From a virus, in IMG/VR virus record IMGVR_UViG_3300044612_001127, positions 1 through 21,834 of that record: a stretch of DNA of 21,834 nucleotides; one strand, given 5' to 3'. A model generated the notes under the pieces. It did no database searches, was not told the DNA's origin, and saw only the letters and a list, made by a program, of their open reading frames with translations. Below are positions 4,551 through 21,834 of the stretch, in pieces (position 1 is the first letter of the stretch; the number at the start of each line of letters is the position of its first letter). Both the position numbers and the translations under genes were made by a program.

Positions 4551-7121
4551 TTATGTCCATTTGATAATAACCACACCAGAACCACCTGTTCCACCAAAAT
4601 AAGTGTATCCTCCGCCACCACCGCCACCACCAGTGGCATTATTTGCATTTGTTCCAACTGTATATAAGGGGCTATAATTACCACCACCATTACCTGCACC
4701 ATAAGGCGTTCCTGTTACTACACCATTAGAACCATATGATGCGTATCCACCACCACCAAATCCAACAGTACCGTTAGTATAAACACCTGCACCACCACCG
4801 CCAGCATATGCTGTATTTGCACCAGAGATTGATGAAAATAAACCAGCGCCGCCATTTGCACCAAATGGACCAGTTGAGTCAGCGGAAAGTCCTACTGAAC
4901 CTGCACCGCCGCCACCACCTCCAGAATGATCTGGCACGCCGCTGGTTCCATTTTTGCCAGCGCCACCATTGTTGCCTTGACCTGGTGTTCCTAAACCACC
5001 AAGGCCTGAAGAACCACCACCAGGATTATCTTGTCCACCACCGCCACCTGAACCTCCAGAAAATCCATTGGTACCGGCATATGGATTACCACCTCTTGCA
5101 CCACCACCTCCACCACCTGTTGACCACAACGAAGTCGTTGCTGTATAAATGCCCGAGTTCGTACCATTACTTCCATTAACACCTGTATCTGTGCCACCAG
5201 CACCAGCACCACCAGCACCAACAACAACTGTCCATGTTTGTGCAGAACTTACACCAAAACCTGAACCAGTACGATAGCCACCAGCGCCACCTCCACCACC
5301 AAATGAACCGCCGCCACCTCCACCAGCAACTATAAGATATTCAATAGAAGTGACTCCAGTAGGGACAAGCCAAGCCGATGCGGTTGTGAAGGTCAATACT
5401 TTATTTACTGTTGAAGAGACTTTAATAACAGCAAAACCTGAACCACCTGCACCACCAACTGTGCCAGGTTCTCCTGCGTACCCACCACCTCCACCTCCAC
5501 CGCCTCTATTTGAAACAGCAACTCCACCTGTTGCCGAACTTGGAGTATTTACACCATTTGCACCACCACAAATAGAATGTCCAAAAGGTGTGTTAGTTGG
5601 ATTTAAATAAGAACTGCCCCCACCACCACCAGCAAACCCTGTGTTTGAACCTGTGATTGACGAAAATATTCCTATACCACCATTAGAACTTGTTCCCGAT
5701 GGTCCACCAAACCCAGCACCGCCAGCACCACCACCTCCACCGGAACGATCACCCGAATTACCACCAGCACCACCGGCGATACTTCCAGCAAATCCTTGTC
5801 CGGGTGTTCCTAAACTAGCACCAGCACCAGGTCCTCTTCCACCACCACCACCAGAACCTCCAGAACGACCGGGTCCACTGTCTGTGTAAGCACCACCACC
5901 TCCGCCTATTGCTGAGAATAAAGCAGTTTGTGCAACATTTGCTGTGCTTGTATTACTAGTAGCAAGAATTGTTTGTGCGCCATTAGCACCAGAACCAATT
6001 ATATTATTATACGCCGCTGCACCAGCAGCACCACCAGCACCAATTTGGATCGTGTATAAAAAGCCAGGACTTACAGGATAACCTGTTCCCTGCAACACAC
6101 CACCGCCACCGCCACCACCACCAATACGACCACCGCCACCACCTCCACCAGCGACTAACAAATAATCAATTGATGTAACGCCTTCTGGTATTACTAATTG
6201 GCCTGTGTTTGCAAAAACATAAATGCCATTAGTGTTCGGTGTTTCTGTATAACGAAGAATGACCGTGCCAGAGCCACCATTGCCTGCTCTGGCCACTCCA
6301 CTAATAGGATTGTCTTGTGACCCACCGCCACCACCACCTCTTGCAAAAACTCCATCCACATTAGTGTTTGCTGGTTGTCCAGCGGCATAACCATACCCAC
6401 CACCACCATCACCACCAGGACGATTTGAACCCGCACCAGTGCCACCTCCAGCGTAACCAGTGTTTGATCCTGTTATTGTGCTAAAACTTCCAACACCACC
6501 CTGACCTACTCCTGGAGGAGTTCCAGTTTGTCCAGCGCCTCCAGCACCGCCGCCACCTCCACCACATGCTGGTGCTGGCCAAGTGGGTGCACCAGCACCT
6601 CCATTATTTCCCTGTCCCGGTGTGCCAAGACCACCTGAAGTTGAGCCACCATTATTTTGTCCACCACCACCGCCTGAACCACCAGAATGTCCTGGACTGC
6701 CTGTTGAATTTCCATAATTTCCCGCACCACCTCCACCTGTTGACCAGACAGCAGGAAACGGTGACGCTGCCCATACACCAGAGTTGGAACCATTTGCACC
6801 ATTACCACCCGATTGAGCATCACCTACATGACCAGCACCACCTGCACCAACGGTAATTGTGTATGTTTCTCCTGGTGTTATGGAAAGACTTGGACTTATT
6901 CTGTATCCACCTGCACCTCCACCACCACCATATCTTCCTCCACCACCGCCACCCGCAACGACAAGATACTCAACTGATGATACACCAGATGGTGCTACCC
7001 AGTTAGTTGTTTCAGTGAATATTCGACTAACTGTGAATGTAGTTAAACCGGCACTGGCAGAGATACCTCTACCAAGAATTCCAGGAAAAGAAGCAACCGC
7101 AAAAGTTGACAACAAAGGCAT
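4551..7121 (-). CDS. Glycine-rich three-module protein, candidate adhesin (copy 1)
   Basis: 856-aa protein dominated by runs of glycine, with a short N-terminal cap (MPLLSTFAVASFPGILGRG) and three homologous modules at about 30-297, 298-572 and 573-856. Each module opens with a W/Q-x-VPxGV-x-S-x-EYLxVAGGGGGG strand, continues with YTITVGAGG-like and SGGSGGGGG / GTPGQG blocks, has a SxITGSNTxYAGGGG-like element, and closes with GGSGVVIIKW or a variant. No signal peptide or membrane segment is visible. Comparable glycine-rich proteins occur in fibre regions of aquatic T4-like phages, and the T-even gp38 adhesin uses a polyglycine II core to display variable loops. By analogy this is a receptor-binding candidate, which is inference. 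Its ATG overlaps the stop of the 46-aa gene (TAATG). Confidence 0.85.
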   Translation of the reverse strand: MPLLSTFAVASFPGILGRGISASAGLTTFTVSRIFTETTNWVAPSGVSSVEYLVVAGGGGGGRYGGGGGAGGYRISPSLSITPGETYTITVGAGGAGHVGDAQSGGNGANGSNSGVWAASPFPAVWSTGGGGAGNYGNSTGSPGHSGGSGGGGGQNNGGSTSGGLGTPGQGNNGGAGAPTWPAPACGGGGGGAGGAGQTGTPPGVGQGGVGSFSTITGSNTGYAGGGTGAGSNRPGGDGGGGYGYAAGQPANTNVDGVFARGGGGGGSQDNPISGVARAGNGGSGTVILRYTETPNTNGIYVFANTGQLVIPEGVTSIDYLLVAGGGGGGGRIGGGGGGGGVLQGTGYPVSPGFLYTIQIGAGGAAGAAAYNNIIGSGANGAQTILATSNTSTANVAQTALFSAIGGGGGAYTDSGPGRSGGSGGGGGRGPGAGASLGTPGQGFAGSIAGGAGGNSGDRSGGGGGAGGAGFGGPSGTSSNGGIGIFSSITGSNTGFAGGGGGSSYLNPTNTPFGHSICGGANGVNTPSSATGGVAVSNRGGGGGGGGYAGEPGTVGGAGGSGFAVIKVSSTVNKVLTFTTASAWLVPTGVTSIEYLIVAGGGGGGSFGGGGGAGGYRTGSGFGVSSAQTWTVVVGAGGAGAGGTDTGVNGSNGTNSGIYTATTSLWSTGGGGGGARGGNPYAGTNGFSGGSGGGGGQDNPGGGSSGLGGLGTPGQGNNGGAGKNGTSGVPDHSGGGGGGAGSVGLSADSTGPFGANGGAGLFSSISGANTAYAGGGGAGVYTNGTVGFGGGGYASYGSNGVVTGTPYGAGNGGGNYSPLYTVGTNANNATGGGGGGGGYTYFGGTGGSGVVIIKWT

Positions 7122-7261
7122 TACATTCCACCGAATAAAAATGCATCGTCAAAAATATCGGGAGGTGATACAATGTTATTAGAACTAACAGCATTATTTG
7201 CAATTAGATTACCTGTAACTGCACCAACTTGTATTATTCCAGTTTGAACTTTCTGTATCAT
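7121..7261 (-). CDS. 46-aa small protein ending FLFGGM
   Basis: Small gene. The ATG at 7261 is preceded by AAGGTG at good spacing; the stop TAA forms TAATG with the next glycine-rich gene. The N-terminal half (QTGIIQVGAVTGNLIANNAV) resembles the start of the 185-aa protein just upstream (residues 8-34: IAEGAVIGNKIASNAI), a short motif typical of phage fibre hinges and tails. The C-terminus FLFGGM recalls the FGG ends of the 1815-aa and 121-aa proteins. The codons for the final Gly-Gly (GGTGGA) can also serve as ribosome binding site for the downstream gene. It may be a real small fibre component, or a remnant of a longer fibre gene that lost its middle and keeps only the conserved ends. Function unknown. 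Confidence 0.65.
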   Translation of the reverse strand: MIQKVQTGIIQVGAVTGNLIANNAVSSNNIVSPPDIFDDAFLFGGM

Positions 7262-7269
7262 TTAACACC

Positions 7270-7827
7270 TTATGGATTCTGATTTAATGCTCTTTGAAAA
7301 CTACTGTTTGATGCCAATACAGTGTAAGTATTTGACGCTGTTTTTATAACATTGAAAGAGTAAAGATCAATTGATTCTTGTTGTGTCGTGGCAAAAGAAG
7401 GAGCAGAATTTCCCAAATAAAAAGGAGATTGTAAAGTTCCATCAATATAAACATTGGCACGATATCTTGTAGCACCCTGTTTCAACAAAATTGCTGTTGT
7501 GATTGATTGACCAATTAATAACTGTGAGTCAAGAGTATTTTGAGTATTTGCTCTAAAATTAAAAGTTACATTTGCTGTTGTGTTTGAAGAGAAGAAATAA
7601 ACTGTATTATTTTCTAAATCAATGTTTACATTACCACCAACAGCAGTCGAATAAACGTTTGCGGTTTCTAGTACCTGCGCCAAAGATATGTGAAGGTTTG
7701 AAGCAAGAGTATTACCTGCAATTTGACCTGCAACAATATTGTTTGCACGAATAGCATTGCTTGCAATTTTGTTACCAATAACTGCACCCTCTGCAATACG
7801 ACCCGATTCTACTTTTTGTTCTGACAT
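7270..7827 (-). CDS. Fibre-associated small structural protein (paralogue of the 167-aa neighbour)
   Basis: 185-aa protein of a type I associate with fibre regions of marine T4-like phages. The first 45 residues carry two hinge-like repeats (GAVIGNKIASNAIRANNIVAG, then QIAGNTLASNL). The rest is a beta-rich domain with GNVNIDLENNTVYFF at about 64-78, NVTFNFRANTQNTLDS, GQSITTAILLKQGAT, YIDGT and SIDLYSFNVIKTASNTYTVLAS near the C-terminus. The same domain occurs in the adjacent 167-aa protein, so the pair arose by duplication. Four bases separate it from that gene and 8 bases from the 46-aa gene. A structural, virion-exposed role is inferred from family resemblance and context; the precise function is not known. 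Confidence 0.8.
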   Translation of the reverse strand: MSEQKVESGRIAEGAVIGNKIASNAIRANNIVAGQIAGNTLASNLHISLAQVLETANVYSTAVGGNVNIDLENNTVYFFSSNTTANVTFNFRANTQNTLDSQLLIGQSITTAILLKQGATRYRANVYIDGTLQSPFYLGNSAPSFATTQQESIDLYSFNVIKTASNTYTVLASNSSFQRALNQNP

Positions 7828-7831
7828 TTAA

Positions 7832-8335: not shown

Positions 8336-8351
8336 TTTATTTCATTTTTGT

Positions 8352-8359
8352 CTATTTAG
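8352..8359 (-). promoter_or_regulatory. Possible late-type promoter box CTAAATA after the giant fibre gene
   Basis: Minus-strand CTCTAAATAGAC in the 26-base gap between the 1815-aa and 167-aa genes. The CTAAATA core equals that ahead of the 111-aa gene and resembles T4-like late boxes. A start about 6 bases on would leave a leader of about 10 bases without a Shine-Dalgarno. Confidence 0.35.
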
Positions 8360-8361
8360 AG

Positions 8362-11300
8362 TTAACCACCAAATACAATTGACATTGCAATTGCTTTACC
8401 TGTTGTCGCCGCAGACTGAATTGAAGTATTCAGTGATGTCTCAAGTTTTTGAGATGTTATGCTACCGTCTGCAATAACAAATGCGTTTGCTGTTGTGTAC
8501 ATAGTGGCAACACGTACCAATTCACCACTAGCAGGAATTTCATCTAATGTAATTGTTTGTGTAGCCGTATTGACAGTATAATCATTTATAGACTGAACAA
8601 TACCATCAATCGTTACAATTAATGTTTCACGTGCTTGAGGGTTAAACCCTAAGTTAAATGTTGCAGTTGTTCCGTTCGATGTCGTTTCAAACACAGATAC
8701 GGAAACATTTGAACTTACATACTGAATAAAGTAAGGGTTGATTTTTTCAAAACCAACAATTCGAATGTTTTCATTATTACCTGGCGCTGTGATAAATGTA
8801 ACCGTGTTTGTTGATGGGTTTACAGTATATGCACTTTCAGGTTGTAAAATACCACCAATAGAAACAAAAATGGCTTTGTTTGATTCGGGTTTAAATCCAA
8901 TACTAAATGCTTGAGTTGAACCATCACCAACAGTATCATATGTTGACACAACAGCACCAGCGGAATTTGCAACATCAAGAAAATATGGATTTACGTTATT
9001 GAAACCAGCAACACGAATCTTTTGTCCTGCTGGTGGCGGTTCGTTAAACGAAATAGAATTATTAGTTCTATTAATCAAATAATCATCTTGTTCTAATTGA
9101 ACAATACCACCAATCGATACAATCACAGCACTATTTGATGCTGGTGTAAATCCTAAAGCGTAAGTAGAAACAGCACCATTCGATGTTGTAGTGAATGTTG
9201 TAACTTCAGCATTAGCACCTGTATTTGCCTTATCAAAAGCGGCGTTTGCTTGTATGAAGGCCGCATTTGCTTGTCCACGAACCCACGGATCCGATGCATT
9301 ATTTGCTGCATTGAAAGCAGCATTTGCATGAATGTAGGATGAATTAGCATGAATGAACCCACTATTGGCGTGATTAAACGCCGACTGTGCATGGAAAATA
9401 CCGGCATTTGCTTGTATAAACGCCGCATTAGCGGTATTAAATGCTGGTTGTACTTGTGGTGCTACATTGTTCGCAGAAGCAAAGGCTGCATTCGCATGAT
9501 CAAATGCTGCATTAGCCTGTGACGAAGTTGCATTCGCTACAATGAATGATGCATTCGCTTGATTATATGATGCATTCGCTTGAATAAATCCACCATTTGC
9601 ATGGAAGAATGCAGAGTTTGCTTGCACAAATCCAGAATTTGCATGATCAAAAGAGGCATTGGCTTGAATCGTCGTAGCATTCGCAACGATAAACGCCGCA
9701 TTGGCACGGTTACTTGCCGTTACTGCTTTACCGTCAGCAGTGTTTGCAACGTCAAATCCAGCATTTGCATGATGAAATGCTGACTGTGCATGAAGAATAC
9801 CGGCATTGGCTTGAATGAATGCTGCATTTGCGGTGTGAAACGCCGGTTGAACTTGCGGTGCTACATTATTAGCAGCAGCAAAAGCGGCATTTGCATATGC
9901 ACCCGCAGACAATGCATTGGCGTCAGCATTATTTGCTTTATCAAACGATGCATTGGCTTGAATAAACGCAGCATTAGCCGTATCGTATGACGGTTGAATC
10001 TGTGGGAATACATTGTTAGCGGCAGCAAAAGCGGCATTGGCATGAATAAATGCCGCATTAGCGTATTGACCGGTTGTGTTTTGTGCATTGAATGCTGATT
10101 GTGCATGAACTATTGCACCGTTAGCCTGTAAGAACGCAGCATTTGCTGTATCATACGAAGGTTGAACTTGCGGTGCCACATTGTTTGCAGCAGCAAAGGC
10201 AGCATTAGCATGATTGAATGATGCGTTGGCTTGAATGAATGCAGAGTTGCCTGTGTCATATGCACCCCGTGTAAATCCAATTACACTTACACCATTAACC
10301 GCAAGAGTACCGAATACATTCGTAGTGCCACCAGCGTTACCAATATTAACAGTTGTTGCTGCACCACCCATACGAATTGCGGTAGCAGTTGTATTGAATA
10401 TTAAGCCAGTAGGTGATGCAGCAAGTATAGATGAAGTTGTTACAGATTGACCAAATTGTCCTAGTTGAGCAGAAAGTATTTGTAGTGTAGGATGATATGT
10501 CAGTCCTGTGTTACCACCGATAATAACATTACCAGTTGTAGCATCAAGCAAAGCAACATTATAGTTTCTAGCACCAGACTTTGTTGTAACTTCTACATAT
10601 TTTGCTACATTTGCAGTGCCAGCAACGATACTATTATTTGCAATAGAGTTTGCTAAATTGTAGCCAGTGTTTGCTTGTTCGAACGCTGCATTTGCATATT
10701 GACCAGTTGCATTCTGGCTTTCATATGCACTATTAGCGTGAACAAATGCCGAGTTTGCATATTGACCAGTGGCGTTTTGACTTTGATATGCGGCATTAGC
10801 GTGAACGAACGCTGCATTCGCATACTGTCCAGTTGCATTTTGTGATTGATATGCAGCGTTAGCATGTACAAAAGCAGAATTAGCATACTGACCAGTTGCA
10901 TTTTGTGACAAGTATGCAGCGTTAGCGTGAACAAAACCAGAATTGGCATGAATGAATGCTGCATTCGTCAAATCAAAAATGATATTCGTTCTTGGTAGAA
11001 TATCAATGTTTTTGATTGTAACGTATGTTGAACGTAAATTGGCGTGTAGTGTATCAGTTATAAACGATGGATCATTGATATCAACATTGTTTTCGCCACC
11101 AATTTCTGGAGTGTAACCTTTAAATAAATGCCATTCTTTTGTTCCTGCATCACGAATTAGACCAGAGTGAGCATTTGTGCCATCATTATAATGACCAGCA
11201 AAACCTAAATCTTTCAGATCAGAAAAATAATTACCAGAACCAAGTATAATGAGAGTATCATTTGCAACGAAAGTGCTTGAGTTGATACTAACAACTTGGC

Positions 11301-13809
11301 CAGTAACAAACAGGTTACCAACAAAAAGATTCTGAGTAACGGTTAGGTTACCAGTAATTACACCACCACCATTGGCATCAATCGAATTATTCGCACGAAT
11401 GAATGCAGCATTTGCATACTGACCTGTTGCATTCTGACTTTCATATGCACTGTTAGAATGAATGAACGCTGAGTTCGCATGAATGAATGCTGAGTTGGTT
11501 GAGTCTCTAGCAACATTATCAATACCATAACCAATAAACGCAGTGCTTTGTTTTGTAGTATCTGGGAATGTTATCTGACCATCTGTACCAAAGTCCCATG
11601 TATACGTCCCAGCGGCTTGAATATGCGCTCCAGCCGGATCGACCCATACCACCGATTGGTCAGCATAATTCATTCTTACATAACCTGCACCACCGTTATT
11701 GTTATATAAATCAATACCATTAGTGTAACCACTTCTACCGATCTGTCCAGATGAATCTGGTAATGTTAATACACTATCTTGACCAAAAGTAAAACTTTTT
11801 GTTGGTGAATCAAAAAGACCTTGATTTGTCTGAATGAGAACACTAGTTTTACCATATAATACTGCTTGACCAGCATTGTCCAAATATATTCCAGTATTAC
11901 CACTTTGTGCATTTGCTGTTATTGCTAATACACCATCACCCTGATTGGTAATTCTTGCTTTGGATGGTTGAAATAATAAATTACCAGGAAGACCAAATAC
12001 ACCATTTGAATATAACTGTGCAGTATTACCGCTGTTGACTAAGTTTGCTTTGTCTGTATTTGCTTGATTGTACGCAGCATTTGCCCAAATGAATGCAGCA
12101 TTAGCATATTGACCAGTGGCGTTTTGTGACAAATATGCAGCGTTAGCATGAACAAATGCACTGTTTGCATGTGTAAATGCAGCATTAGCGTATTGACCCG
12201 TGGCATTTTGTGAAATATATGCTGCGTTGGCATGATCAAAGGCAGCATTTGTTTTTATAAATGCACTATTAGCCTGAATATATGCGGCATTAGCAGCAGC
12301 AAAAGCACCGTTAGCATTTGCAAATGCGGCGTTGGCTCTAGCAAAAGCACCGTTAGCGTTTGCAAAAGCATATGATGTGTAGACATACAGGTCTACTGTG
12401 CCATTTGCACCAAAGAAATAATTAGAGAAGATAGCATTAGCACCTGTAATGCTACCGTTTGAACCTGTTGTTGTTAATGTATTTGATGTGAGATTACCAA
12501 CGATAACAACATCACCGGTAACTTGACCACCAACATTGGCATTCAGTGAATTGTTTGCACGAATGAATCCTGCATTTGCATGATTGAATGCTGCATTGGC
12601 TTGAATAAATCCGGAGTTTGCATGATTATATGCAGCATTAGATTTCGCAAAAGCACCATTGGCATTTGCAAAGGCTGCATTAGCGGCAGCAAAGGCACCG
12701 TTGGCATTTGCAAAAGCTGCATTCGCATGATCAAATGCTGAGTTTGTTTTTATGAAGCCACTGTTTGCATGTATAAATGCAGCATTTGTTTTTATAAATG
12801 CACTATTAGCCTGAATATATGCGGCATTAGCGGCAGCAAAAGCACCGTTGGCATTTGCAAAGGCGGCGTTAGCGTGATGATATGCAGAGTTGGCTTGAAT
12901 GAAACCGCTGTTTGCATAACTGCCTGATGCATTTTGAAACTGAAACGCAGAATTGGCGTGAATGAATGCTGCATTGGCTTGTTCAAATGCCGAGTTTGCT
13001 CTGATGCCACTTGTGTTCTGACTTGTGTATGCCGCATTTGCATGTAAGTATGCCGCATTTACATGAAAGAAAGATGAATTGGCTTGAATGAATCCAGAGT
13101 TAGCATGAATGTATGCCGCATTAGCAGCAGCAAAACCCGCATTCGCATTTGCAAAAGCAAAATTAGCATGTAAGAACGACGAATTGGCTTGAATGAAGCC
13201 ACTGTTTGCATGATTGAATGAATAATTAGCATGTAAGAATGCCGAGTTGGCTTTTACAAATGCAGAGTTTGCATAAGATGCTGGCGCTGAACCACCTAAG
13301 TCATCATAATTTATACCATCATTTGTAAATGTCCACTTGTTATCTGTTTCGTTCCATAACAAGTAAACGTTTGGCTGTGCGCCACGATCAATCTCAATAC
13401 CCGCATTCATTGTCGGTTCACCCGACGGACTGATTGCAGTGTTCAATGAAATTATATTGTCACCAATTAACACAACAGGTACATTGGCACCAATCGAACC
13501 ACCAATGATGCTTAGATTACCTTGAATAGTAACATCACCGGTAATTAAACCACCAACGTTAGCGTTTAACGCATTGTTTGCACGAACATAAGCGGAGTTT
13601 GCATGATTGTGTGCAGTATTTAATTTGCCATATGCAGAAATGCCACGAATGTAAGAATCATAGCCACCAATAGCAATTGGTCCATCACTACCTGGTGAAC
13701 CAATGAATAATGTATTACTGCTATATGAATAAGCCGGTTCGCCGATGTTTAGTGTTGCTGGTGTGTTCGACGTTAGCGAACGTTTTATTTGAATTGGTGT
13801 ATTTGCCAT
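8362..13809 (-). CDS. Giant Ala/Asn-repeat fibre protein
   Basis: 1815-aa protein, by composition and architecture a long tail or accessory fibre. Residues 1-175: a globular start with IQIKRSLTSNTPATLNIGEPAYSYS-type sequence known from T4-like marine fibre proteins. Then five blocks of a seven-residue repeat ANxAFxx (about 176-420, 478-583, 766-803, 945-1050, 1188-1530) separated by non-repeat segments (for example 803-945 with NLTVTQNLFVGNLFVTG and DLGFAGHYNDG). Residues about 1533-1777 hold three tandem beta modules of roughly 82 residues (TSNGxxxxYxLGFxPxSNxAxxVSIGGIxQ ... VxGFxxxNPYF). The tail is DGSITSQKLETS with a terminal SIVFGG. No signal peptide or membrane segment. With phenylalanine or tyrosine at a and alanine at d, the repeat could form an oligomeric coil, but occasional Pro-containing units make the fold uncertain. 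Confidence 0.85.
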   Translation of the reverse strand: MANTPIQIKRSLTSNTPATLNIGEPAYSYSSNTLFIGSPGSDGPIAIGGYDSYIRGISAYGKLNTAHNHANSAYVRANNALNANVGGLITGDVTIQGNLSIIGGSIGANVPVVLIGDNIISLNTAISPSGEPTMNAGIEIDRGAQPNVYLLWNETDNKWTFTNDGINYDDLGGSAPASYANSAFVKANSAFLHANYSFNHANSGFIQANSSFLHANFAFANANAGFAAANAAYIHANSGFIQANSSFFHVNAAYLHANAAYTSQNTSGIRANSAFEQANAAFIHANSAFQFQNASGSYANSGFIQANSAYHHANAAFANANGAFAAANAAYIQANSAFIKTNAAFIHANSGFIKTNSAFDHANAAFANANGAFAAANAAFANANGAFAKSNAAYNHANSGFIQANAAFNHANAGFIRANNSLNANVGGQVTGDVVIVGNLTSNTLTTTGSNGSITGANAIFSNYFFGANGTVDLYVYTSYAFANANGAFARANAAFANANGAFAAANAAYIQANSAFIKTNAAFDHANAAYISQNATGQYANAAFTHANSAFVHANAAYLSQNATGQYANAAFIWANAAYNQANTDKANLVNSGNTAQLYSNGVFGLPGNLLFQPSKARITNQGDGVLAITANAQSGNTGIYLDNAGQAVLYGKTSVLIQTNQGLFDSPTKSFTFGQDSVLTLPDSSGQIGRSGYTNGIDLYNNNGGAGYVRMNYADQSVVWVDPAGAHIQAAGTYTWDFGTDGQITFPDTTKQSTAFIGYGIDNVARDSTNSAFIHANSAFIHSNSAYESQNATGQYANAAFIRANNSIDANGGGVITGNLTVTQNLFVGNLFVTGQVVSINSSTFVANDTLIILGSGNYFSDLKDLGFAGHYNDGTNAHSGLIRDAGTKEWHLFKGYTPEIGGENNVDINDPSFITDTLHANLRSTYVTIKNIDILPRTNIIFDLTNAAFIHANSGFVHANAAYLSQNATGQYANSAFVHANAAYQSQNATGQYANAAFVHANAAYQSQNATGQYANSAFVHANSAYESQNATGQYANAAFEQANTGYNLANSIANNSIVAGTANVAKYVEVTTKSGARNYNVALLDATTGNVIIGGNTGLTYHPTLQILSAQLGQFGQSVTTSSILAASPTGLIFNTTATAIRMGGAATTVNIGNAGGTTNVFGTLAVNGVSVIGFTRGAYDTGNSAFIQANASFNHANAAFAAANNVAPQVQPSYDTANAAFLQANGAIVHAQSAFNAQNTTGQYANAAFIHANAAFAAANNVFPQIQPSYDTANAAFIQANASFDKANNADANALSAGAYANAAFAAANNVAPQVQPAFHTANAAFIQANAGILHAQSAFHHANAGFDVANTADGKAVTASNRANAAFIVANATTIQANASFDHANSGFVQANSAFFHANGGFIQANASYNQANASFIVANATSSQANAAFDHANAAFASANNVAPQVQPAFNTANAAFIQANAGIFHAQSAFNHANSGFIHANSSYIHANAAFNAANNASDPWVRGQANAAFIQANAAFDKANTGANAEVTTFTTTSNGAVSTYALGFTPASNSAVIVSIGGIVQLEQDDYLINRTNNSISFNEPPPAGQKIRVAGFNNVNPYFLDVANSAGAVVSTYDTVGDGSTQAFSIGFKPESNKAIFVSIGGILQPESAYTVNPSTNTVTFITAPGNNENIRIVGFEKINPYFIQYVSSNVSVSVFETTSNGTTATFNLGFNPQARETLIVTIDGIVQSINDYTVNTATQTITLDEIPASGELVRVATMYTTANAFVIADGSITSQKLETSLNTSIQSAATTGKAIAMSIVFGG
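9220..10245 (-). repeat. ANxAF heptad repeat block 5, with NNVAPQVQP spacers
   Basis: Coding repeat inside the 1815-aa fibre (about residues 1188-1530), a 21-bp unit encoding ANAAFxx or variants. Four spacer units encoding NNVxPQ(V/I)QP(S/A) begin near 9443, 9842, 9989 and 10157. Their separations (399, 147 and 168 bases) are all exact multiples of 21, so the lattice is unbroken through the proline-containing spacers. Confidence 0.85.
10660..10975 (-). repeat. ANxAF heptad repeat block 4, with four 63-bp units
   Basis: Within the 1815-aa fibre (about residues 945-1050). From 10694 to about 10945 there are four tandem 63-bp units, beginning at 10694, 10757, 10820 and 10883, each encoding three heptads (SQNATGQ, YANxAFV, HANxAYx order). 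Copies differ mainly at synonymous positions. Confidence 0.85.
11400..11510 (-). repeat. ANxAF heptad repeat block 3 (short)
   Basis: A handful of 21-bp units in the 1815-aa gene (about residues 766-803), including one SQNATGQYANAAF unit as in block 4. It lies between two non-repeat domains. Confidence 0.75.
12060..12375 (-). repeat. ANxAF heptad repeat block 2
   Basis: 21-bp coding repeats in the 1815-aa gene (about residues 478-583). Two NATGQYANAAF units start at 12104 and 12188, 84 bases apart (four heptads). The upstream end is an ANANGAF-rich stretch. Confidence 0.8.
12560..13280 (-). repeat. ANxAF heptad repeat block 1
   Basis: 21-bp coding repeats after the N-terminal domain of the 1815-aa fibre (about residues 176-420). 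Units vary at the two positions between ANxAF cores (IQ, IH, LH, DH, IK, AA). Codon usage varies from copy to copy while the protein motif is kept. Confidence 0.85.
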
Positions 13810-14040: not shown

Positions 14041-14043
14041 GAC

Positions 14044-14408: not shown

Positions 14409-14423
14409 CAATCTCATACCGCT

Positions 14424-14450: not shown

Positions 14451-14480
14451 CTTTGAAATAAAAATAATTTATACGTCAAG

Positions 14481-14885
14481 TTAAGATGCAAATTCAGGAG
14501 GTGGAACTGGTTCCACTTCATCCCATGATGTTGTTTCTTCATTCCATGCATACATCTTCTTACCTTCACCCATTCCCATGTCTGCTGGTTGTGCTACGGG
14601 TGCTTCCCAATTTGCTTCATCATTGTCTAGTACCCATGATGGATATGGTTTAGGGGGAACGAATGCATCAAGTTCTGAATTGTATGTATAACCGATACCT
14701 GCGTAACGCTTACGGAAGTTATGATTGTATGATGTTTGCTTCCAATTGCCACCGAACAATCTTTGGCAAAAACCAATACCCATTTCTTCACGTTCCTGAC
14801 CAGATGCGTCAAGCAGTTCATTGTTAGACACAACAATGACTTGTGTTACTACGTTGTTTTCATCAAGTTGTGCAAAATGTGCCAT
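14481..14885 (-). CDS. 134-aa MAHFAQLDENN family phage protein
   Basis: Member of a small protein family common in aquatic phages. Hallmarks: MAHFAQLDENNVVTQVIVVSN at the start, WKQTSYNHNFRKRYAGIGYTY (48-68), FVPPKPYPSWVLD (74-86), ANWEAPVAQP (91-100) and a closing YAWNEETTSWDEVE (112-125). No enzyme motif, signal or membrane segment is visible; the repeated W-containing strand-turn pattern suggests a small fibre-associated protein. Function unproven. It is preceded by a strong Shine-Dalgarno AAGGGAG (9-base spacing) and two late-type promoter boxes, and followed by a terminator, so it forms its own transcription unit between two fibre genes. Confidence 0.85.
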   Translation of the reverse strand: MAHFAQLDENNVVTQVIVVSNNELLDASGQEREEMGIGFCQRLFGGNWKQTSYNHNFRKRYAGIGYTYNSELDAFVPPKPYPSWVLDNDEANWEAPVAQPADMGMGEGKKMYAWNEETTSWDEVEPVPPPEFAS

Positions 14886-14919
14886 TTGTTAAAACTCCCT
14901 TGTGTTAAAAATTACTTTA

Positions 14920-14939
14920 TATTTATAAATCTATTTATG
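14920..14939 (-). promoter_or_regulatory. Tandem T4-type late promoter boxes
   Basis: TATAAATA at 14920-14927, an exact match to the T4 late promoter box, and CATAAATA at 14932-14939, overlapping the stop codon of the upstream glycine-rich gene. From the inner box a T4-like start point would give a leader of about 30 bases carrying the AAGGGAG ribosome binding site of the 134-aa gene. In T4 such boxes are read by host RNA polymerase with gp55 and gp33; those genes are not in this window. Confidence 0.7.
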
Positions 14940-17571
14940 TCCATTTGAGAATGACTACGCCGGAACCACCCCGTCCACCAACACCAATTGCAGGTGTTTC
15001 TACGCCACCACCTCCTCCACCACCCGTTGAGGTATTTCCGCTTTGCGCTGTGCGACTGACTGGTGCATCAATACCACCGTTACCACCACCACCTTGTCCA
15101 CCAACACAACCACCCGGATTTGTTCCAACATTATCACCACCACCACCGCCGCCCCCAGCGTATGCGGTATTAGAGCCTGTGATTGTTGAGAATATTCCTA
15201 TACCACCATTACCAAAAGCACCAGGTGTTGCGGCAGCACCAGCACCACCACCACCTGAGCCAGCATATTGTGCGCCGCCAGGATTTGAACCACCAGAATT
15301 TCCTTGACCTGGTGTTCCAGCGGCACCAACTGGTTGACTAAAACCAACACCGCCACCACCAGATCCACCTACTGCCGCAGCATAATAAGCGGGAGCAAGA
15401 TAACCTCCACCACGACCTCCACCTATTGCAACTATTGCTGTTCCATTTGCATTAAACGAAGAGTTGCTGCCACTAGTTGATTGAGAAGGTGCCGATGCTG
15501 CTCCACCACCACCAACGGTAATGGTGTGTGTGTTTCCTGGTGTGACTGATGTGGTGCCTGATAATAAACCACCAGCACCACCACCTCCGGCTCCGGCAGC
15601 ACCAATGCCAGTGCCACCTGCACCACCACCAGCAACAATAAGATATTCGACTGATGTTACGCCATTGGGAACAGTCCATTGCCCTGTGTTATAAAATATT
15701 GCAACATTATTTTGTGTTGCAGATATTTTGATAACAGCAAATCCTGAACCGCCGGCGCCACCACTTTGGCCAGCGGCAGGTGATGGTGAATATCCACCAC
15801 CTCCACCACCACCGCCAGTGTTTGTGTTGCCAGTTGAACCTGCAATTAATACTCCACCATTTGCTCCACCAAAACTGATTGCACCAATTCCTGCTATACC
15901 AGTACCAAATTGATTATCTACACCGCCTCCACCGCCTCCAGCATACCCAGTGTTTGAGCCAGTAATTGTTGAGAATATTCCTATACCACCATTACCGCTT
16001 CTATAAGGAGTAGTGGTAGAACCGTTGCCACCTATATTAGCAGCGCCGCCGCCACCACCACTAGTTGCGTATATTCCTGGTTGAAATGCTGCACCACCTC
16101 CAGCAAATCCTTGTCTCGGTGTTCCTGCACCACCACCGGGAGCATTTGACCAACTGCCAGCACCCCCACCAGAACCACCAGAACGAGCAGTACCGCCGTT
16201 GTAAGAACCACCTCCACCGCCGCCTATTGCAGTTAATAAAGCAGTGTTAGATGCTCCATTTGCTGTACTTGTATTGCCAACAGCAAAGATTGTATTTACC
16301 CCATTAGAACCTGGCACATTATCTGCGGTTGAACCAGTACCACCAGAACCAATTTGAACGGTGTACAATTGATTTGGTGCTACAGGATAACTAGTTCCTT
16401 GAAGAACACCCCCTGCACCACCACCTCCGCCATAAAATCTACCTCCACCACCACCACCACCAACAAGCAGATAATCAATTGTTGTGACACCATCAGGTAC
16501 TCTAAATTGACCTGTGTTTGCAAAAACGAATGTTTGATTTGGTGTTACGCCAAAAGTCCATTTGAGAATGATGACACCAGATGCTCCGGATCCTCCTCCT
16601 TGATTGCCTGAAGGATTGGCACCGCCTCCGCCTCCACCTCCGCCGGTGTTTGTATTTGCATTTGCAGCAGTGCCGGCAATAGCAGTGGGTCCAACACCAC
16701 CAAGTCCACCGTCACCACCACCAAACGGTGTGCCCAACCAAGGTGATCCTGTTGAGTAGTTTGCATAACCACCGCCACCTCTGGCAGAATCGGCTATGGG
16801 TGATCCATATGCGCCGCCGCCACCACCACCAGCATATGCAACGTTTGCACCACTTATCGAAGAAAATATTCCTATACCACCATTACCACCCGCTACAATT
16901 CCACCCCCACCCGGTGTTCCGTTTTGTCCAACACCGCCAGCACCGCCACCACCACCCGAACCGTAGTTGCCACCACCAGCATAACTATCGCCACCGTTGA
17001 AACCTTGTCCTGGTGTACCTAAGCCTGCTGGTCCAACTGGAAAGCCTTGTGGAGATACTGTACCACCCCCACCAGATCCGCCGGAATTTCCAAATGTTGC
17101 AATTCCAGGTGATTGTCCACCACCACCGCCACCGCCAATAGACCAGATTGATGGAAAGGGTGATGACGACCAAATGCCAGAGTTTGAACCGTTGGAGCCT
17201 TTAACTTGAGAAGCAGAAGGTCCACCCGAACCACCTGCACCAACAGCGATTGTATATGATTGTCCTGGTACAACTGACAAAGAAGTTCCAGTTAAAAACC
17301 CACCTGCGCCGCCACCACCACCATCTCCAGCACCACCGCCACCACCACCGGCAATAACAACATAATCCACTTGTGACACACCCGACGGTACAACCCAAGA
17401 AGTGCTTTCTGTGAAGATTTGAACACCAATCGAAGGTGCAGCGTAAGTTGGCCAAATGCCCACAAGTCTTGCTAATTGAATTTCGTTTGCATTCCACAAA
17501 CCAATGGCAGAAGTGTTACTAGAAATATTTCTAGCACCAATTAAACCACCGTTAAATCTTCTTAATGCCAT
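14935..17571 (-). CDS. Glycine-rich three-module protein, candidate adhesin (copy 2)
   Basis: 878-aa glycine-rich protein. N-terminal cap of about 50 residues (NGGLIGARN ... GLWNANEIQLARLVGIWP) is homologous to that of copy 3. Three modules follow: about 53-343 (opens ESTSWVVPSGVSQVDYVVIAGG, closes ILKWTFGVTPNQ), 344-620 (opens VFANTGQFRVPDGVTTIDYLLVGG, closes FAVIKISATQN) and 621-878 (opens YNTGQWTVPNGVTSVEYLIVAGG, closes VVILKWT). Each holds the GGIGIFS-x-I-(T/S)G-(S/A)N element and GTPGQG/GTPRQG. A polyglycine-packed adhesin is plausible by analogy with T-even gp38; the sequence alone does not prove receptor binding. Start chosen at the ATG 3 bases after the preceding stop; the GGA of the preceding KWT codons lies at ribosome-binding distance. 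Confidence 0.85.
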   Translation of the reverse strand: MALRRFNGGLIGARNISSNTSAIGLWNANEIQLARLVGIWPTYAAPSIGVQIFTESTSWVVPSGVSQVDYVVIAGGGGGGAGDGGGGGAGGFLTGTSLSVVPGQSYTIAVGAGGSGGPSASQVKGSNGSNSGIWSSSPFPSIWSIGGGGGGGQSPGIATFGNSGGSGGGGTVSPQGFPVGPAGLGTPGQGFNGGDSYAGGGNYGSGGGGGAGGVGQNGTPGGGGIVAGGNGGIGIFSSISGANVAYAGGGGGGAYGSPIADSARGGGGYANYSTGSPWLGTPFGGGDGGLGGVGPTAIAGTAANANTNTGGGGGGGGANPSGNQGGGSGASGVIILKWTFGVTPNQTFVFANTGQFRVPDGVTTIDYLLVGGGGGGGRFYGGGGGAGGVLQGTSYPVAPNQLYTVQIGSGGTGSTADNVPGSNGVNTIFAVGNTSTANGASNTALLTAIGGGGGGSYNGGTARSGGSGGGAGSWSNAPGGGAGTPRQGFAGGGAAFQPGIYATSGGGGGAANIGGNGSTTTPYRSGNGGIGIFSTITGSNTGYAGGGGGGVDNQFGTGIAGIGAISFGGANGGVLIAGSTGNTNTGGGGGGGGYSPSPAAGQSGGAGGSGFAVIKISATQNNVAIFYNTGQWTVPNGVTSVEYLIVAGGGAGGTGIGAAGAGGGGAGGLLSGTTSVTPGNTHTITVGGGGAASAPSQSTSGSNSSFNANGTAIVAIGGGRGGGYLAPAYYAAAVGGSGGGGVGFSQPVGAAGTPGQGNSGGSNPGGAQYAGSGGGGAGAAATPGAFGNGGIGIFSTITGSNTAYAGGGGGGGDNVGTNPGGCVGGQGGGGNGGIDAPVSRTAQSGNTSTGGGGGGGVETPAIGVGGRGGSGVVILKWT

Positions 17572-17574
17572 TTG

Positions 17575-20253
17575 TTATGTCCATTTGAGAATTACGATGC
17601 CAGAACCACCGGCAGCACCAGCGCCATTTGGGTTTCGACCGCCACCACCGCCACCGCCGCCCGTTCCACCCGTTCCTGTTGTTGACGAAATAGGAGTGCC
17701 CAAACCTCCATTACCGCCTCCGAAGGGTGTGCCCAATGAAGTTCCATAGGATGAATAGCCACCACCACCAAATCCAGGAAAGTTTGGAGCGGGAGTGAAT
17801 GATCCACCACCTCCACCACCGGCATATGCAGTGTTTGAGCCTGAGATTGTTGAAAAAATTCCTATACCGCCATTGCCGCCAAAAAGTGGTGAACCACCCG
17901 CATTCGTTCCGTTAGCACTAGCACCACCACCTCCACCACCACTTCTAAAAGATGCGCCATCAGATATGCCTATTCCACCACCAAATCCTTCGGCAGAAAC
18001 ATACGCTCCAAGATTTCCTCTTCCAGCATTTCCTGCAGTTGATCCTTGTGTGGCACCGCCACCTCCAGAACCACCAGAAAGACCGTTTGAAATAGTAGCA
18101 GTGCTATCACTACCACCTCCGCCACCACCACCTGTTGACCAGACGGCGGGAAATGGTGATGTAGACCAAATACCTGAATTTGAACCATTACTTCCAAGAA
18201 CGCTTACTGTTGGAGCGCCAGTACCACCAGCACCAATCACAACTGTATGTGTTGCGCCTGGTGTTACTGTTAAAGAAGGGCTTACTCTATAGCCTCCGGC
18301 ACCTCCACCACCACCACCGTTGCCACCACCTCCACCACCACCTCCAGCAATCATCAAATACTCAATTGATGTCACACCAGCAGGCACATTCCATGTTGCT
18401 GTATTGGAAAACACTGCTACCTTATTTTGTGTTGCTGAGACTTTAATGACAGCAAAACCTGAACCACCTGCGCCACCTGGACCACCACTGCCCGGTGCGC
18501 CACCACCACCGCCACCACCACTACCACTATTAACATTAGCAGAAGAGGCCGCAAAAGGTCCGGTTGTACCATCAGTGGCACCAAATGGAGTTCCCAATAA
18601 AGTTCCGAAAGAAGCATAACCACCGCCACCTTTTCCTGATGTGCCTCCATTGAATGTTGCTCCACCGCCACCACCAGCAAAAGCGGTATTTGAACCTGTG
18701 ATTGTTGAAAAGATTCCTATACCACCGTTACCACCAACAGTAGTTGTACCATTCACTCCAACACTGCCTGCTCCACCGCCTCCACCAGCACCCCAATTAG
18801 GTACTCCTGGATTTCCGGCACCCAAACCACCACTATTTCCTTCTGATGGTGTATAACCACCTATATTACCTAGACCTGACACCGTAGCGCCTGTAGCACC
18901 ACCTCCTGATCCACCAGATAAACCATTACCACCACCAGGGGTATCACCTCTTCCACCGCCACCGCCGCCGCTGGCTGATATCAATACAGAATTTGCTGTA
19001 TTTCCACTAGAAATAACAGAATTAGAACCATTAGATGATCCAAATACAGAAGAACCACCTGAACCAATTTGAATTGTATATAATTGACCGGGACCTACTG
19101 GATATCCTACACCTTGACGCACTCCACCAGCACCACCACCGCCGCCAATACCAAACGCTGGACTGGACGATCCTCCACCGCCACCACCAGCGACTAACAA
19201 ATAATCGATTGATGTGACACCCTGCGGCATTACTAACTGACCCGTGTTCGCAAAGACAAATATTTGATTTGGTGTTACACCAAAAGTCCATTTAAGAATG
19301 ACTACACCAGAACCGCCGTTGCCCTCTTTTGCTAACCCAGTTGGATTGTCTGTGCCACCTCCACCACCTCCGCCGGTTGAAGCAGTTCCATTGGCTGCTG
19401 GAATTCGAGGTGCATTAGACATCTGTGCGCCTCTACCACCACCACCTAATCCACCTACACCAGCAGTTGCATAATTGGAACCTCCACCACCACCAGCATA
19501 ATAAGTTGATGTTCCTGTTATCGAACTTGTTAAACCTATTCCTCCAGCGTATGGTGCAGGCGATGGTACACCTTGACCAACAGCACCCGCACCGCCGCCA
19601 CCACCACCAGAACGACCGCCACCGCCAGGCGAACCCGCACCTGTACCACCATTAGATCCTTCTGCTGGAGAATATCCACCGATATTTCCTGCACCACCGG
19701 GATATGAAAATGGTCCAGAAGTTCCGCCACCGCCACCAGAACCACCAGCAAAACCATAACCACCTGTCCCCGGGACACCAGCATTTCCACCGCCGCCGCC
19801 ACCACCACTTGACCATATTGAAGGAAATGGTGATGTGCTTAATATGCCCGAATTGGAACCATTTGAACCATCCGTGTTCACTGCACCACCTGGAGTTTGT
19901 GGACCACCACCGCCTCCGGCACCAACAACGATAGACATAGTTGTGCCTGGTGTTACAGGCAGTGCGGGGCTTGTTCTGAACCCACCACCACCTCCACCAC
20001 CACCAAGTGAACCACCACCTCCACCTCCACCACCAATGACAAGATATTCAACTGATGATACATCTTGTGGCACTGTCCAAGAAGTGCTTTCTGTAAAGAT
20101 TTGAACGCCAGTGGAAAGAAGAGTATCAACAGGCCATAAACTAGCAAGTCTGTTGACGTTTACTTGATCAAGCGTCCAGATGCCACTTGTTGTTCCGAAT
20201 CTTGAACTTTGATTTACTAGGCCAATGATGCCGCCATTTAAACCTAAAGGCAT
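17575..20253 (-). CDS. Glycine-rich three-module protein, candidate adhesin (copy 3)
   Basis: 892-aa protein closely parallel to copy 2: cap NGGIIGLVNQS ... GIWTLDQVNVNRLASLWP, then modules at about 51-327 (ESTSWTVPQDVSSVEYLVIGG to ILKWTFGVTPNQ), 328-609 (VFANTGQLVMPQGVTSIDYLLVAGG to FAVIKVSATQN) and 610-892 (SNTATWNVPAGVTSIEYLMIAGG to IVILKWT). The middle module carries the GVRQGVGYPV element, matching GVLQGTxYPV in the middle modules of copies 1 and 2. The first module differs from the others in having GGIGLTSSITGTSTYY in place of GGIGIFSTITGSNTAY. The ATG overlaps the stop of the 127-aa gene as TAATG. Likely an adhesin or fibre component by analogy; unproven. Confidence 0.85.
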   Translation of the reverse strand: MPLGLNGGIIGLVNQSSRFGTTSGIWTLDQVNVNRLASLWPVDTLLSTGVQIFTESTSWTVPQDVSSVEYLVIGGGGGGGGSLGGGGGGGGFRTSPALPVTPGTTMSIVVGAGGGGGPQTPGGAVNTDGSNGSNSGILSTSPFPSIWSSGGGGGGGNAGVPGTGGYGFAGGSGGGGGTSGPFSYPGGAGNIGGYSPAEGSNGGTGAGSPGGGGRSGGGGGGAGAVGQGVPSPAPYAGGIGLTSSITGTSTYYAGGGGGSNYATAGVGGLGGGGRGAQMSNAPRIPAANGTASTGGGGGGGTDNPTGLAKEGNGGSGVVILKWTFGVTPNQIFVFANTGQLVMPQGVTSIDYLLVAGGGGGGSSSPAFGIGGGGGAGGVRQGVGYPVGPGQLYTIQIGSGGSSVFGSSNGSNSVISSGNTANSVLISASGGGGGGRGDTPGGGNGLSGGSGGGATGATVSGLGNIGGYTPSEGNSGGLGAGNPGVPNWGAGGGGGAGSVGVNGTTTVGGNGGIGIFSTITGSNTAFAGGGGGATFNGGTSGKGGGGYASFGTLLGTPFGATDGTTGPFAASSANVNSGSGGGGGGGAPGSGGPGGAGGSGFAVIKVSATQNKVAVFSNTATWNVPAGVTSIEYLMIAGGGGGGGGNGGGGGGAGGYRVSPSLTVTPGATHTVVIGAGGTGAPTVSVLGSNGSNSGIWSTSPFPAVWSTGGGGGGGSDSTATISNGLSGGSGGGGATQGSTAGNAGRGNLGAYVSAEGFGGGIGISDGASFRSGGGGGGASANGTNAGGSPLFGGNGGIGIFSTISGSNTAYAGGGGGGSFTPAPNFPGFGGGGYSSYGTSLGTPFGGGNGGLGTPISSTTGTGGTGGGGGGGGRNPNGAGAAGGSGIVILKWT

Positions 20254-20636
20254 TAACTGATCTCTTCAAAAGATGAAATGAAGTGTAGACGATTGTTTGC
20301 ATCACCTTTTACTTTGATTTGGTCACCTTCTTCTAGATAAAGTGATTTAGACAAAATATCAAGTGACGATCTAGCAGGTACAGTAACCGTATTGGCAATA
20401 GCATATGTTGCATTACCACTACCTGTACTTGTGTTTTGTGCGCCAAATTTAAACAATTCTACTGAAACATTGCCAGCGTTTGTGCCGTCAACATTCGAAA
20501 CAATCAATGTGTTAATTTTAAACACTTTGCCTGAATTAACAGCATTGACAATCACTGACGATGAAACTGTTGTAATGTTGGCGACATTACTTTTACCTCT
20601 AATATCTATTACGCTAACAATGTTTGGCGCAGCCAT
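20253..20636 (-). CDS. 127-aa small structural protein (MAAPNIV family)
   Basis: 127-aa protein of a family I recognise from fibre and tail regions of T4-like cyanophages and relatives: MAAPNIVSVIDIRGKS at the start, NAVNSGKVFKINTLIVSNVDGTNAGNVSVELF (about 32-63), NTVTVPARSSLDILSKSLYLEEGDQIKVKGD (about 82-112) and a closing FISSFEEIS. The pattern suggests a single beta-sandwich domain; no enzymatic motif is seen. The ATG is preceded by GGAGG at good spacing, formed by the last two glycine codons of the 121-aa gene. Its stop overlaps the start of glycine-rich copy 3, implying coupled translation. A virion role is inferred from the family and neighbours. Confidence 0.82.
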   Translation of the reverse strand: MAAPNIVSVIDIRGKSNVANITTVSSSVIVNAVNSGKVFKINTLIVSNVDGTNAGNVSVELFKFGAQNTSTGSGNATYAIANTVTVPARSSLDILSKSLYLEEGDQIKVKGDANNRLHFISSFEEIS

Positions 20637-20639
20637 TTA

Positions 20640-21005: not shown

Positions 21006-21023
21006 TTAATTCCTTATTTGTTT

Positions 21024-21440: not shown

Positions 21441-21462
21441 TCAATCACCTTTAAAATAAAAC

Positions 21463-21470
21463 TATTTATT
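21463..21470 (-). promoter_or_regulatory. Late-type promoter box AATAAATA before the 138-aa gene
   Basis: AATAAATA on the minus strand in the 37-base gap between the partial glycine-rich gene and the 138-aa gene, at a distance from the ATG (21440) that leaves room for a leader with AAAGGTGA. Confidence 0.55.
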
Positions 21471-21477
21471 TGACGAT

Positions 21478-21834
21478 TTACCACTTAATAATTACGATAC
21501 CTGAACCACCAGCACCACCACCATAATATTGACCACTACCTCCACCACCAGTGTTTGTGTTGCCTGAAGTGACTGCGGCTGGTGCGGCTGGTGCTGCGCT
21601 TGCTGTAGCACCACCAAATGGTGTGCCTAACCACGGTGCGCCAGTAGAATATAAAGCATAACCGCCGCCACCTTTACCTTGATTATTGGCACTAGCGCCA
21701 TCACCAGAACCGCCACCGCCACCAGCGTATGCTACGTTTGAACCACTCATTGATGAGAAGATTCCTATACCACCATTACCACCAATAATTGCTGCACCAT
21801 ATGCTGGAGTTCCGGCACCACCAGCACCACCACC
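21478..21834 (-). CDS. Glycine-rich protein, C-terminal end only (copy 4, cut by right edge)
   Basis: Open frame from the right edge to the TAA at 21478, 118 residues, the C-terminal part of another glycine-rich module: GNGGIGIFSSMSGSNVAYAGGGGG, GGGGYALYSTGAPWLGTPFGG, GNTNTGGGG and the closing GGSGIVIIKW. The final Thr of the usual KWT end is absent, as it ends KW. The nearest relative in the window is the first module of copy 2 (YANYSTGSPWLGTPFGGG). An internal ATG exists at 21750, but the frame is open to the edge and the motif starts before that ATG, so the true start lies outside. Confidence 0.85.
   Translation of the reverse strand, partial: GGGAGGAGTPAYGAAIIGGNGGIGIFSSMSGSNVAYAGGGGGSGDGASANNQGKGGGGYALYSTGAPWLGTPFGGATASAAPAAPAAVTSGNTNTGGGGSGQYYGGGAGGSGIVIIKW

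What the first reader, a model, noticed from the sequence alone, without database searches (positions are those of the whole stretch)
4551..21834. Three complete and one partial glycine-rich proteins sharing the same A-B-C module order
Copies 1-3 each consist of three homologous modules in a fixed order: the first closes at ILKWTFGVTPNQ or ILRYTETPN, the second has GVLQG/GVRQG-x-x-YPV and closes FAVIKxS, the third closes VVI(L/I)KWT. This points to duplication of a whole three-module gene rather than random module shuffling. Conserved frames with differing loops between Gly runs recall the T-even gp38 pattern of glycine motifs flanking hypervariable segments. A phage carrying four such genes might display several adhesins at once or use them as a recombination reservoir.
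Basis: partly seen in the sequence, partly recalled or inferred. Interest (0 to 1): 0.62.

Follow-up and report, generated by a model that had tools for sequence, protein, structure and literature searches.

The report
Swappable three-module phage attachment proteins
A T4-like phage fragment carries four related glycine-rich proteins that look like host-attachment tips: each gene position keeps its own short docking tail, while the three binding modules behind it differ between otherwise near-identical phages.

Summary
Three complete genes (4551-7121, 14935-17571, 17575-20253) and one cut gene (21478-21834), all on the minus strand, consist of tandem Pfam PF21722 glycine-rich modules in a fixed A-B-C order. 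Trees reject clustering by gene (AU p<1e-4). The middle module is a solid positional clade; A and C mix. The fold is confidently predicted (pLDDT 91.5): a TNF-like base carrying a polyglycine lattice. Best solved match is the Pam3 cyanophage tail fibre, then the Bxb1 tail tip and ALK; S16 gp38 is not matched.

Relatives add more. The genes sit in fixed slots of a tail-fibre cluster. The N-terminal 30-48 residues are slot-specific (permutation p=0.0005), but the modules carry no slot signal. A/B/C identity lies mainly at module ends; the middle loops carry almost none. In phages 92-95% identical in flanking DNA, slot 1 keeps the docking peptide but has unrelated modules plus a lectin-like domain, or holds that domain alone.

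Best reading: tail-tip adhesins with slot-specific docking and modules drawn from a shared pool. "Duplication of one three-module gene in this phage" is too simple. Virion presence, receptors and stoichiometry are untested. New variant of a known kind.

The parts
4551..7121 (-). g1 (slot 1): 856-aa A-B-C glycine-rich protein, directly upstream of gp13
   Evidence: PF21722 x3, E 3.9e-53; synteny
7032..7121 (-). slot-1 docking peptide, residues 1-30 (MPLLSTFAVASFPGILGRGISASAGLTTFT)
   Evidence: identical in L091 and near-identical in L031, while the modules differ
6228..7028 (-). g1 module A
5403..6227 (-). g1 module B
   Evidence: B clade 100/99
4554..5402 (-). g1 module C
14935..17571 (-). g2 (slot 2): 878-aa A-B-C glycine-rich protein
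   Evidence: PF21722 x3, E 1.3e-57
17425..17571 (-). slot-2 docking peptide (RRFNGGLIG...GLWNANEIQLARL..IWP)
   Evidence: slot-specific HMM and identities
16537..17424 (-). g2 module A
15709..16536 (-). g2 module B
14938..15708 (-). g2 module C
17575..20253 (-). g3 (slot 3): 892-aa A-B-C glycine-rich protein
   Evidence: PF21722 x3, E 2.1e-47; full-length AF2 pLDDT 70.3, pTM 0.56
20107..20253 (-). slot-3 docking peptide (MPLGLNGGIIGLVN...GIWTLDQVNVNRLASLWP)
19267..20106 (-). g3 module A
18424..19266 (-). g3 module B
17578..18423 (-). g3 module C; modelled as TNF-like base plus polyglycine lattice
   Evidence: AF2 pLDDT 91.5, pTM 0.90; Foldseek Pam3 fibre prob 1.00
21478..21834 (-). g4 (slot 4), 3' part only: last 118 aa of a glycine-rich protein, 5' end off the contig
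   Evidence: phrog_2295 E 9e-9; position upstream of the slot-3 block in relatives
14481..14885 (-). phrog_7759 protein directly downstream of slot 2; candidate assembly partner (inferred from neighbourhood only)
   Evidence: follows glycine-rich genes in near and far relatives; no Pfam or PDB match
20253..20636 (-). phrog_1276 protein, immediately upstream of slot 3
8362..13809 (-). 1815-aa tail-fibre-like protein in the same cluster
   Evidence: PF03906 T7 tail fibre N-terminal domain E 8e-6; phrog tail fiber
7270..7827 (-). phrog_5906 protein (copy a) upstream of slot 1; its homologues abut gp13 where slot 1 is empty

Best explanation
These are tail-tip receptor-binding proteins (adhesins) of a T4-like phage, built on one plan. 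A short N-terminal peptide, specific to the gene slot, docks each protein at its own place on the virion; three tandem TNF-like plus polyglycine modules then present variable loops to the host surface. The module ends (first beta strands and last strand) carry the positional identity A, B or C and keep the chain assembled. The loops, held on a glycine lattice, are free to vary and to move between positions, slots and phages by homologous recombination in the conserved glycine frames. Several slots filled at once would let one virion carry several specificities, and swapping the cassette behind a fixed docking peptide changes specificity without touching the rest of the particle. Shown: module order, fold prediction, slot-specific N-termini, lack of slot signal in modules, cassette replacement at slot 1. 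Inferred: presence in virions, docking by the N-terminal peptide, receptor binding by the loops, simultaneous display.
For: Fold: single-module AF2 model pLDDT 91.5, pTM 0.90; Foldseek best solved matches Pam3 tail fibre 7ypx E 1.6e-4 prob 1.00, Bxb1 tail tip 9d93 E 3.6e-4, then ALK/LTK glycine-rich domains; only the Pam3 fibre is found by sequence profile at a meaningful E (0.006). In Pam3 gp24 these domains are proposed to bind the host, with a conserved glycine stem and hypervariable distal tip (PMC9608196). Context: cluster between baseplate/fibre genes and gp13, the tail-fibre region of cultured relatives. Slot-specific N-termini: within-slot 59% vs between-slot 31% identity, p=0.0005, while the three modules give p=0.19, 0.41, 0.55; most backbone proteins of the same phages average 84-93% (p10330 72%). 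Positional information concentrated in residues 1-26 and the last strand, close to none in loops 123-180. Replacement: L091 and the window share 92-95% identical flanking DNA and the first ~60 residues of g1 (90% aa), then only 41% of non-Gly positions, and flanking identity resumes at window 4561, the last codons of g1. L091 adds a C-terminal domain weakly matching a serum lectin (E 0.013); L089 has that domain alone in the slot-1 region. In L010 slot 4 holds a DUF7483 tail-fibre protein with a similar basic N-terminal motif, followed by a PF16778 tail assembly chaperone.
Against: No virion proteomics, binding or host data exist for this uncultured phage. Full-length model only pLDDT 70.3, pTM 0.56, N-terminal 45 residues unresolved, so docking is inferred from conservation. 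TM-scores to Pam3 are moderate (0.43/0.47). Slot 1 has two N-terminal types (MPLLSTFAV... and MPIRKYTN.RFSL.RF), the second resembling slot 4, so slot specificity is strong but not absolute. Many relatives have no glycine-rich gene in slot 1, so that copy is dispensable there.
Confidence: 0.74

Rival explanations
1. Single-chain pseudo-trimer: the A, B and C modules of one chain pack around a pseudo-threefold axis and replace the three identical subunits of a Pam3-type homotrimeric fibre tip, so each tip shows three different loop sets. (A refinement of the best explanation, about module packing.)
For: Pam3 gp24 is a homotrimer of one TNF-like plus glycine-rich unit (PMC9608196); three modules is the commonest number in the sample (37 three-, 21 two-, 16 one-module complete ORFs); positional identity sits at module ends in the beta base, and the B class is deeply conserved (22 of 24 middle modules).
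Against: Two-module proteins are common, and near-identical slot-4 docking peptides carry two (L017) or three (L012, L022) modules, which a strict threefold does not predict; one ORF (L070) has three modules plus half of a fourth; module arrangement was not resolved and multimers could not be modelled.
Confidence: 0.25
2. Beads on a string: the modules do not pack together; tandem copies add avidity or several specificities along one flexible chain. (The alternative refinement of the best explanation.)
For: Module number varies 1, 2, 3, even behind near-identical docking peptides; single modules fold confidently alone.
Against: Order A-B-C is strongly kept and B is nearly always in the middle, and linkers between modules are very short, suggesting defined contacts.
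Confidence: 0.35
3. Non-specific envelope-binding brushes: the polyglycine fingers insert into or stick to the host envelope, as proposed for brush or polyglycine domains of mycobacteriophages, and the loop diversity is not about receptor choice.
For: Brush domains with exposed hydrophobic patches are presumed to contact lipid-rich layers (PMC13243795; PMC13252515); a Bxb1 tail-tip chain is the second best solved match.
Against: Cassette-wide replacement in near-identical phages and fusion or replacement by a lectin-like domain look like specificity switching.
Confidence: 0.15
4. Recent whole-gene duplication inside this phage, the copies serving as an intragenomic recombination reservoir.
For: Same architecture in all copies; modules group by position.
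Against: Nearest neighbours of window modules lie in other phages at up to 69% non-Gly identity against at most 45% among window modules; within-phage copies are barely more alike than between-phage ones; only short shared DNA stretches (about 75 bp or less) between window copies.
Confidence: 0.07

Closest known systems
Pam3 myocyanophage tail fibre gp24 (PDB 7YFW, 7YPX)
   Same: TNF-like base plus polyglycine-rich distal domain with variable tip; best match by profile (E 0.006) and by fold (prob 1.00)
   Different: One module per chain and an N-terminal helical bundle docking to the baseplate; here up to three modules per chain, several genes per phage and short slot-specific N-termini
Pfam PF21722 Gly_rich_2 / PHROG 2295
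   Same: Sequence members at high significance
   Different: The PHROG has no assigned function and a full-text search found no phage paper naming the Pfam family; the positional A-B-C code and slot system were not found described
T-even gp38 adhesins (S16, T2, PP01)
   Same: Glycine-rich motifs flanking hypervariable receptor-recognition segments, polyglycine II lattice (PMC12892980)
   Different: gp38 has a beta-helix base and sits on a gp37 trimer; S16 gp38 is not among the 41 fold matches, and no gp37-like partner was identified here
Bxb1 tail-tip chain (9D93 Qa) and mycobacteriophage brush or polyglycine domains
   Same: Second best solved fold match
   Different: Siphophage tail-tip component, one domain in the matched chain
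ALK/LTK extracellular glycine-rich domain
   Same: TNF-like plus polyglycine fold, weaker match
   Different: Animal receptor domain; no membership claimed
Pelagiphages HTVC008M AGE60399 and Mosig QOI69026; phage DSL-LC04 WJZ48128
   Same: Phages with complete genomes and one- or two-module PF21722 proteins in the fibre region
   Different: One or two modules, in Mosig with an Ig-like domain; annotated only as hypothetical

Membership tests
PF21722 Gly_rich_2 | Pfam gathering score | tested here: met
   162-196 bits against a cut-off of 24.3 in g1-g3; g4 fragment below threshold
Pam3 gp24-type tail fibre | TNF-like plus polyglycine-lattice fold | tested here: met
   Foldseek prob 1.00, E 1.6e-4, moderate TM 0.43/0.47
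Pam3 gp24-type tail fibre | sequence relatedness | tested here: inconclusive
   profile E 0.006, aligning mainly the TNF-like part
Pam3 gp24-type tail fibre | one module per chain, long N-terminal helical bundle | tested here: not met
   three modules per chain; 30-48 aa N-terminus with one short predicted helix at low confidence
Pam3 gp24-type tail fibre | homotrimer; located on the virion | not testable with these tools
   no multimer prediction, no proteomics
Pam3 gp24-type tail fibre | dedicated Tfa-like chaperone next to the fibre gene | tested here: inconclusive
   phrog_7759 protein follows the genes in many relatives but has no Pfam or PDB match
T-even gp38 adhesin | beta-helix base attached to a gp37 trimer | tested here: not met
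   fold match is TNF-like; S16 gp38 absent from the 41 matches; no gp37 neighbour identified
T-even gp38 adhesin | glycine motifs flanking hypervariable segments | tested here: met
   invariant glycines with variable loops in 120 modules
T4-like phage genome context | gp13-gp14-gp15-gp16-gp17 order | tested here: met
   PHROG assignments, terminase about 62% identical to Kyanoviridae
Diversity-generating retroelement target | reverse transcriptase and template repeat nearby | tested here: inconclusive
   no reverse transcriptase among the annotated window ORFs and variation includes loop length changes, but template repeats were not searched for and regions outside the contig were not seen

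The most novel reading that the evidence does not exclude
Each protein is a single-chain hetero-pseudo-trimer: positional classes A, B and C are the three faces of one fibre tip, so one tip presents three different loop sets, and the phage fills up to four separate docking sites with such tips, drawing loops from a community-wide pool.
Probability: 0.22. Interest if true: 0.72.

Novelty: new variant of a known kind. Interest (0 to 1): 0.56.

Why it matters
If right, this separates two layers in one adhesin gene: a conserved address (the N-terminal docking peptide, specific to a virion site) and an exchangeable specificity cassette, with a third code at module ends that keeps module order. That would explain how closely related phages change attachment proteins wholesale without altering the rest of the particle, and it gives a simple sequence rule for finding such proteins, now labelled only 'glycine-rich domain-containing', in aquatic phage genomes. 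It also makes testable whether multi-gene adhesin sets widen host range or only add avidity.

Tried and rejected
Whole-protein tblastn against cultured phages gave nothing, probably because low-complexity filtering removes the query. Position labels A and C were not confirmed as separate clades. A strict 'three modules always' rule was rejected: one, two and three modules occur, plus one ORF with three and a half. Intragenomic gene conversion as main source was rejected for lack of within-phage similarity. S16 gp38 as fold relative was not found. The phrog_7759 protein could not be tied to any known chaperone by Pfam or PDB. The lectin reading of the extra domain in L089 and L091 rests on weak matches only (E 0.009-0.013) and no Pfam hit. 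The B-module scan added few loci because glycine patterns saturate the search. A first blastn with an identity filter missed most shared segments and was redone. The full-length model cannot show how modules pack: coordinates and error matrices were not available.
Full report
WHAT IS THERE. The window is a 21.8-kb IMG/VR virus fragment. Its left end holds gp17 (partial), a Dps/ferritin-like gene, gp16, gp15, gp14 and gp13 of a T4-like phage; the terminase is at best 62-63% identical to cultured cyanophages and pelagiphages of Kyanoviridae. Upstream, on the same strand, lies a tail-fibre gene cluster with three complete glycine-rich genes and one cut by the contig end. Each complete gene has three PF21722 modules.

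MODULE PHYLOGENY. In a maximum-likelihood tree of the nine full modules and the partial one, clustering by gene is rejected for all three genes (AU p 1e-6, 7e-5, 1e-5). B modules form a clade at 100/99. A and C do not separate cleanly; the partial g4 sequence falls with g2 A, with which it shares a distal loop, although it is the end of its gene. In a 114-module tree with IMG/VR relatives, 22 of 24 middle modules group together, while first and last modules intermix, and the nearest neighbours of window modules lie in other phages. So the A-B-C plan is old and shared; it was not made by a recent duplication in this phage.

FOLD. An AF2 model of module g3C from a 120-module alignment has pLDDT 91.5 and pTM 0.90. 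Against solved structures the best matches are the Pam3 cyanophage tail fibre (E 1.6e-4, probability 1.00) and the Bxb1 tail tip (E 3.6e-4), followed by ALK/LTK glycine-rich domains. The profile search by sequence also finds only the Pam3 fibre at a meaningful level (E 0.006). The Pam3 paper describes a TNF-like domain whose strands extend into a lattice of glycine-rich motifs, with a conserved stem and a hypervariable tip proposed to bind the host, in a homotrimer (PMC9608196). BFVD contains over two hundred related predicted proteins at E <= 0.001, most of those listed named only 'glycine-rich domain-containing'.

SYNTENY AND SLOTS. Relatives with 80-98% identical backbone proteins show a fixed order: slot 4, phrog_9114, a fibre-like gene, phrog_1276, slot 3, slot 2, phrog_7759, phrog_1084, phrog_13853, the large fibre, two phrog_5906 genes, slot 1, gp13. 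The N-terminal 30-48 residues differ by slot and are shared between phages at the same slot. Quantified, anchors are 59% identical within and 31% between slots (permutation p=0.0005), while modules 1, 2 and 3 show no slot effect (p=0.19, 0.41, 0.55) and within-phage copies are hardly more alike than unrelated ones. Most backbone proteins of the same set average 84-93% identity; one (p10330) averages 72%. Slot 1 has two anchor types, one resembling slot 4, so the rule is strong but not absolute.

WHERE POSITION IS ENCODED. Across 69 modules of three-module genes, information about A/B/C is highest in residues 1-26 (mean excess 0.42 bits, 16 of 26 columns above z 5) and at the last strand, and close to zero in residues 123-180 (0.03 bits, none above z 5). 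These ends are also the junctions between modules, so part of the signal may be linker-specific. Shared DNA segments between genes cross slots and positions, for example 889 bp at 85% between L021 (slot 2/3) and slot 4 of L024, and L031 module 3 with L010 module 1.

CASSETTE REPLACEMENT. A scan anchored on gp14, independent of the glycine-rich genes, gave 496 confirmed stretches, of which the best 80 were loaded. In the 62 loci where a gene within 400 bp upstream of gp13 could be read (some are near-duplicates), 17 have a glycine-rich gene in slot 1 (10 complete with three modules, 1 with two, 3 with one, and 3 cut by the contig end); in the other 45 another gene lies next to gp13. In L091, flanking DNA is 92-95% identical to the window and identity runs into g1 to about residue 60, then stops, and resumes at window 4561, the last codons of the gene. 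Between these points the proteins share 41% of non-glycine positions, against 90% identity in the first 60 residues. L091 keeps A-B-C and adds a C-terminal domain; L089 has that domain alone. It matches a serum lectin only weakly (E 0.009-0.013). The L092 pair (same contig as L031) breaks at similar places. In L010, slot 4 holds a DUF7483 protein with PHROG tail-fibre matches and a similar basic N-terminal motif, followed by a PF16778 tail assembly chaperone. These replacements are the best indirect evidence that slot genes are adhesins.

MODULE NUMBER. Complete distinct ORFs in all fetched loci: 37 with three modules, 21 with two, 16 with one; one of the three-module ORFs (L070) has half of a fourth. 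Most loci were fetched by similarity to the query, so the proportions are not unbiased. Two- and three-module proteins share the slot-4 anchor, which weakens a strict pseudo-trimer model but does not exclude it.

VERDICT. Shown: architecture, fold class by confident prediction, slot-specific N-termini, slot-free modules, cassette replacement. Inferred: virion location, docking, receptor binding, parallel display. The most likely account is a set of tail-tip adhesins with fixed addresses and exchangeable specificity modules; the arrangement of the three modules is open.

Noticed in passing
window 839-1273 (-): A Dps/ferritin-like gene (PF00210, E 2.7e-21) sits between gp16 and gp17 and is kept in relatives, mostly at about 90% identity; cultured phages have only distant homologues (about 32% in S-SRM01).
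   Followed up: partly
window 8362-13809 (-): The 1815-aa fibre-like protein consists largely of short 'HANAAF/QANSAF'-type repeats.
   Followed up: no
window 7270-7827 and 7832-8335 (-): Two adjacent phrog_5906 paralogues; their homologues carry repeated 'NxIxANNIVA'-like stretches and vary in number and length in relatives.
   Followed up: no
L091 8478-8517: A 40-bp stretch 97.5% identical to the start region of window gene 7270-7827 lies between the slot-1 gene and gp13, also in L089 and L090; possibly a relic of a rearrangement.
   Followed up: no
L091 7419-8264; L089 2114-3016; L101 5598-6500; L014 2129-3031: A 280-300-aa domain (84-91% identical between phages, weak match to a serum lectin) occurs alone or fused behind A-B-C modules.
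   Followed up: partly
L143 1581-4532 and L144 488-2923: A Vgb_lyase-like repeat region (PF24684) is followed by one PF21722 module in a single protein.
   Followed up: no
L108 5153-5725: An extra 190-aa ORF lies between the Dps gene and gp17 (looks like a GIY-YIG-type endonuclease by eye, not tested).
   Followed up: no
L070 4001-6913: A 970-aa protein with three full modules and about half of a fourth at its C-terminus.
   Followed up: partly
window 14481-14885 (-): phrog_7759 protein, 50-60% identical in quite different phages and often near glycine-rich genes; no known domain.
   Followed up: partly
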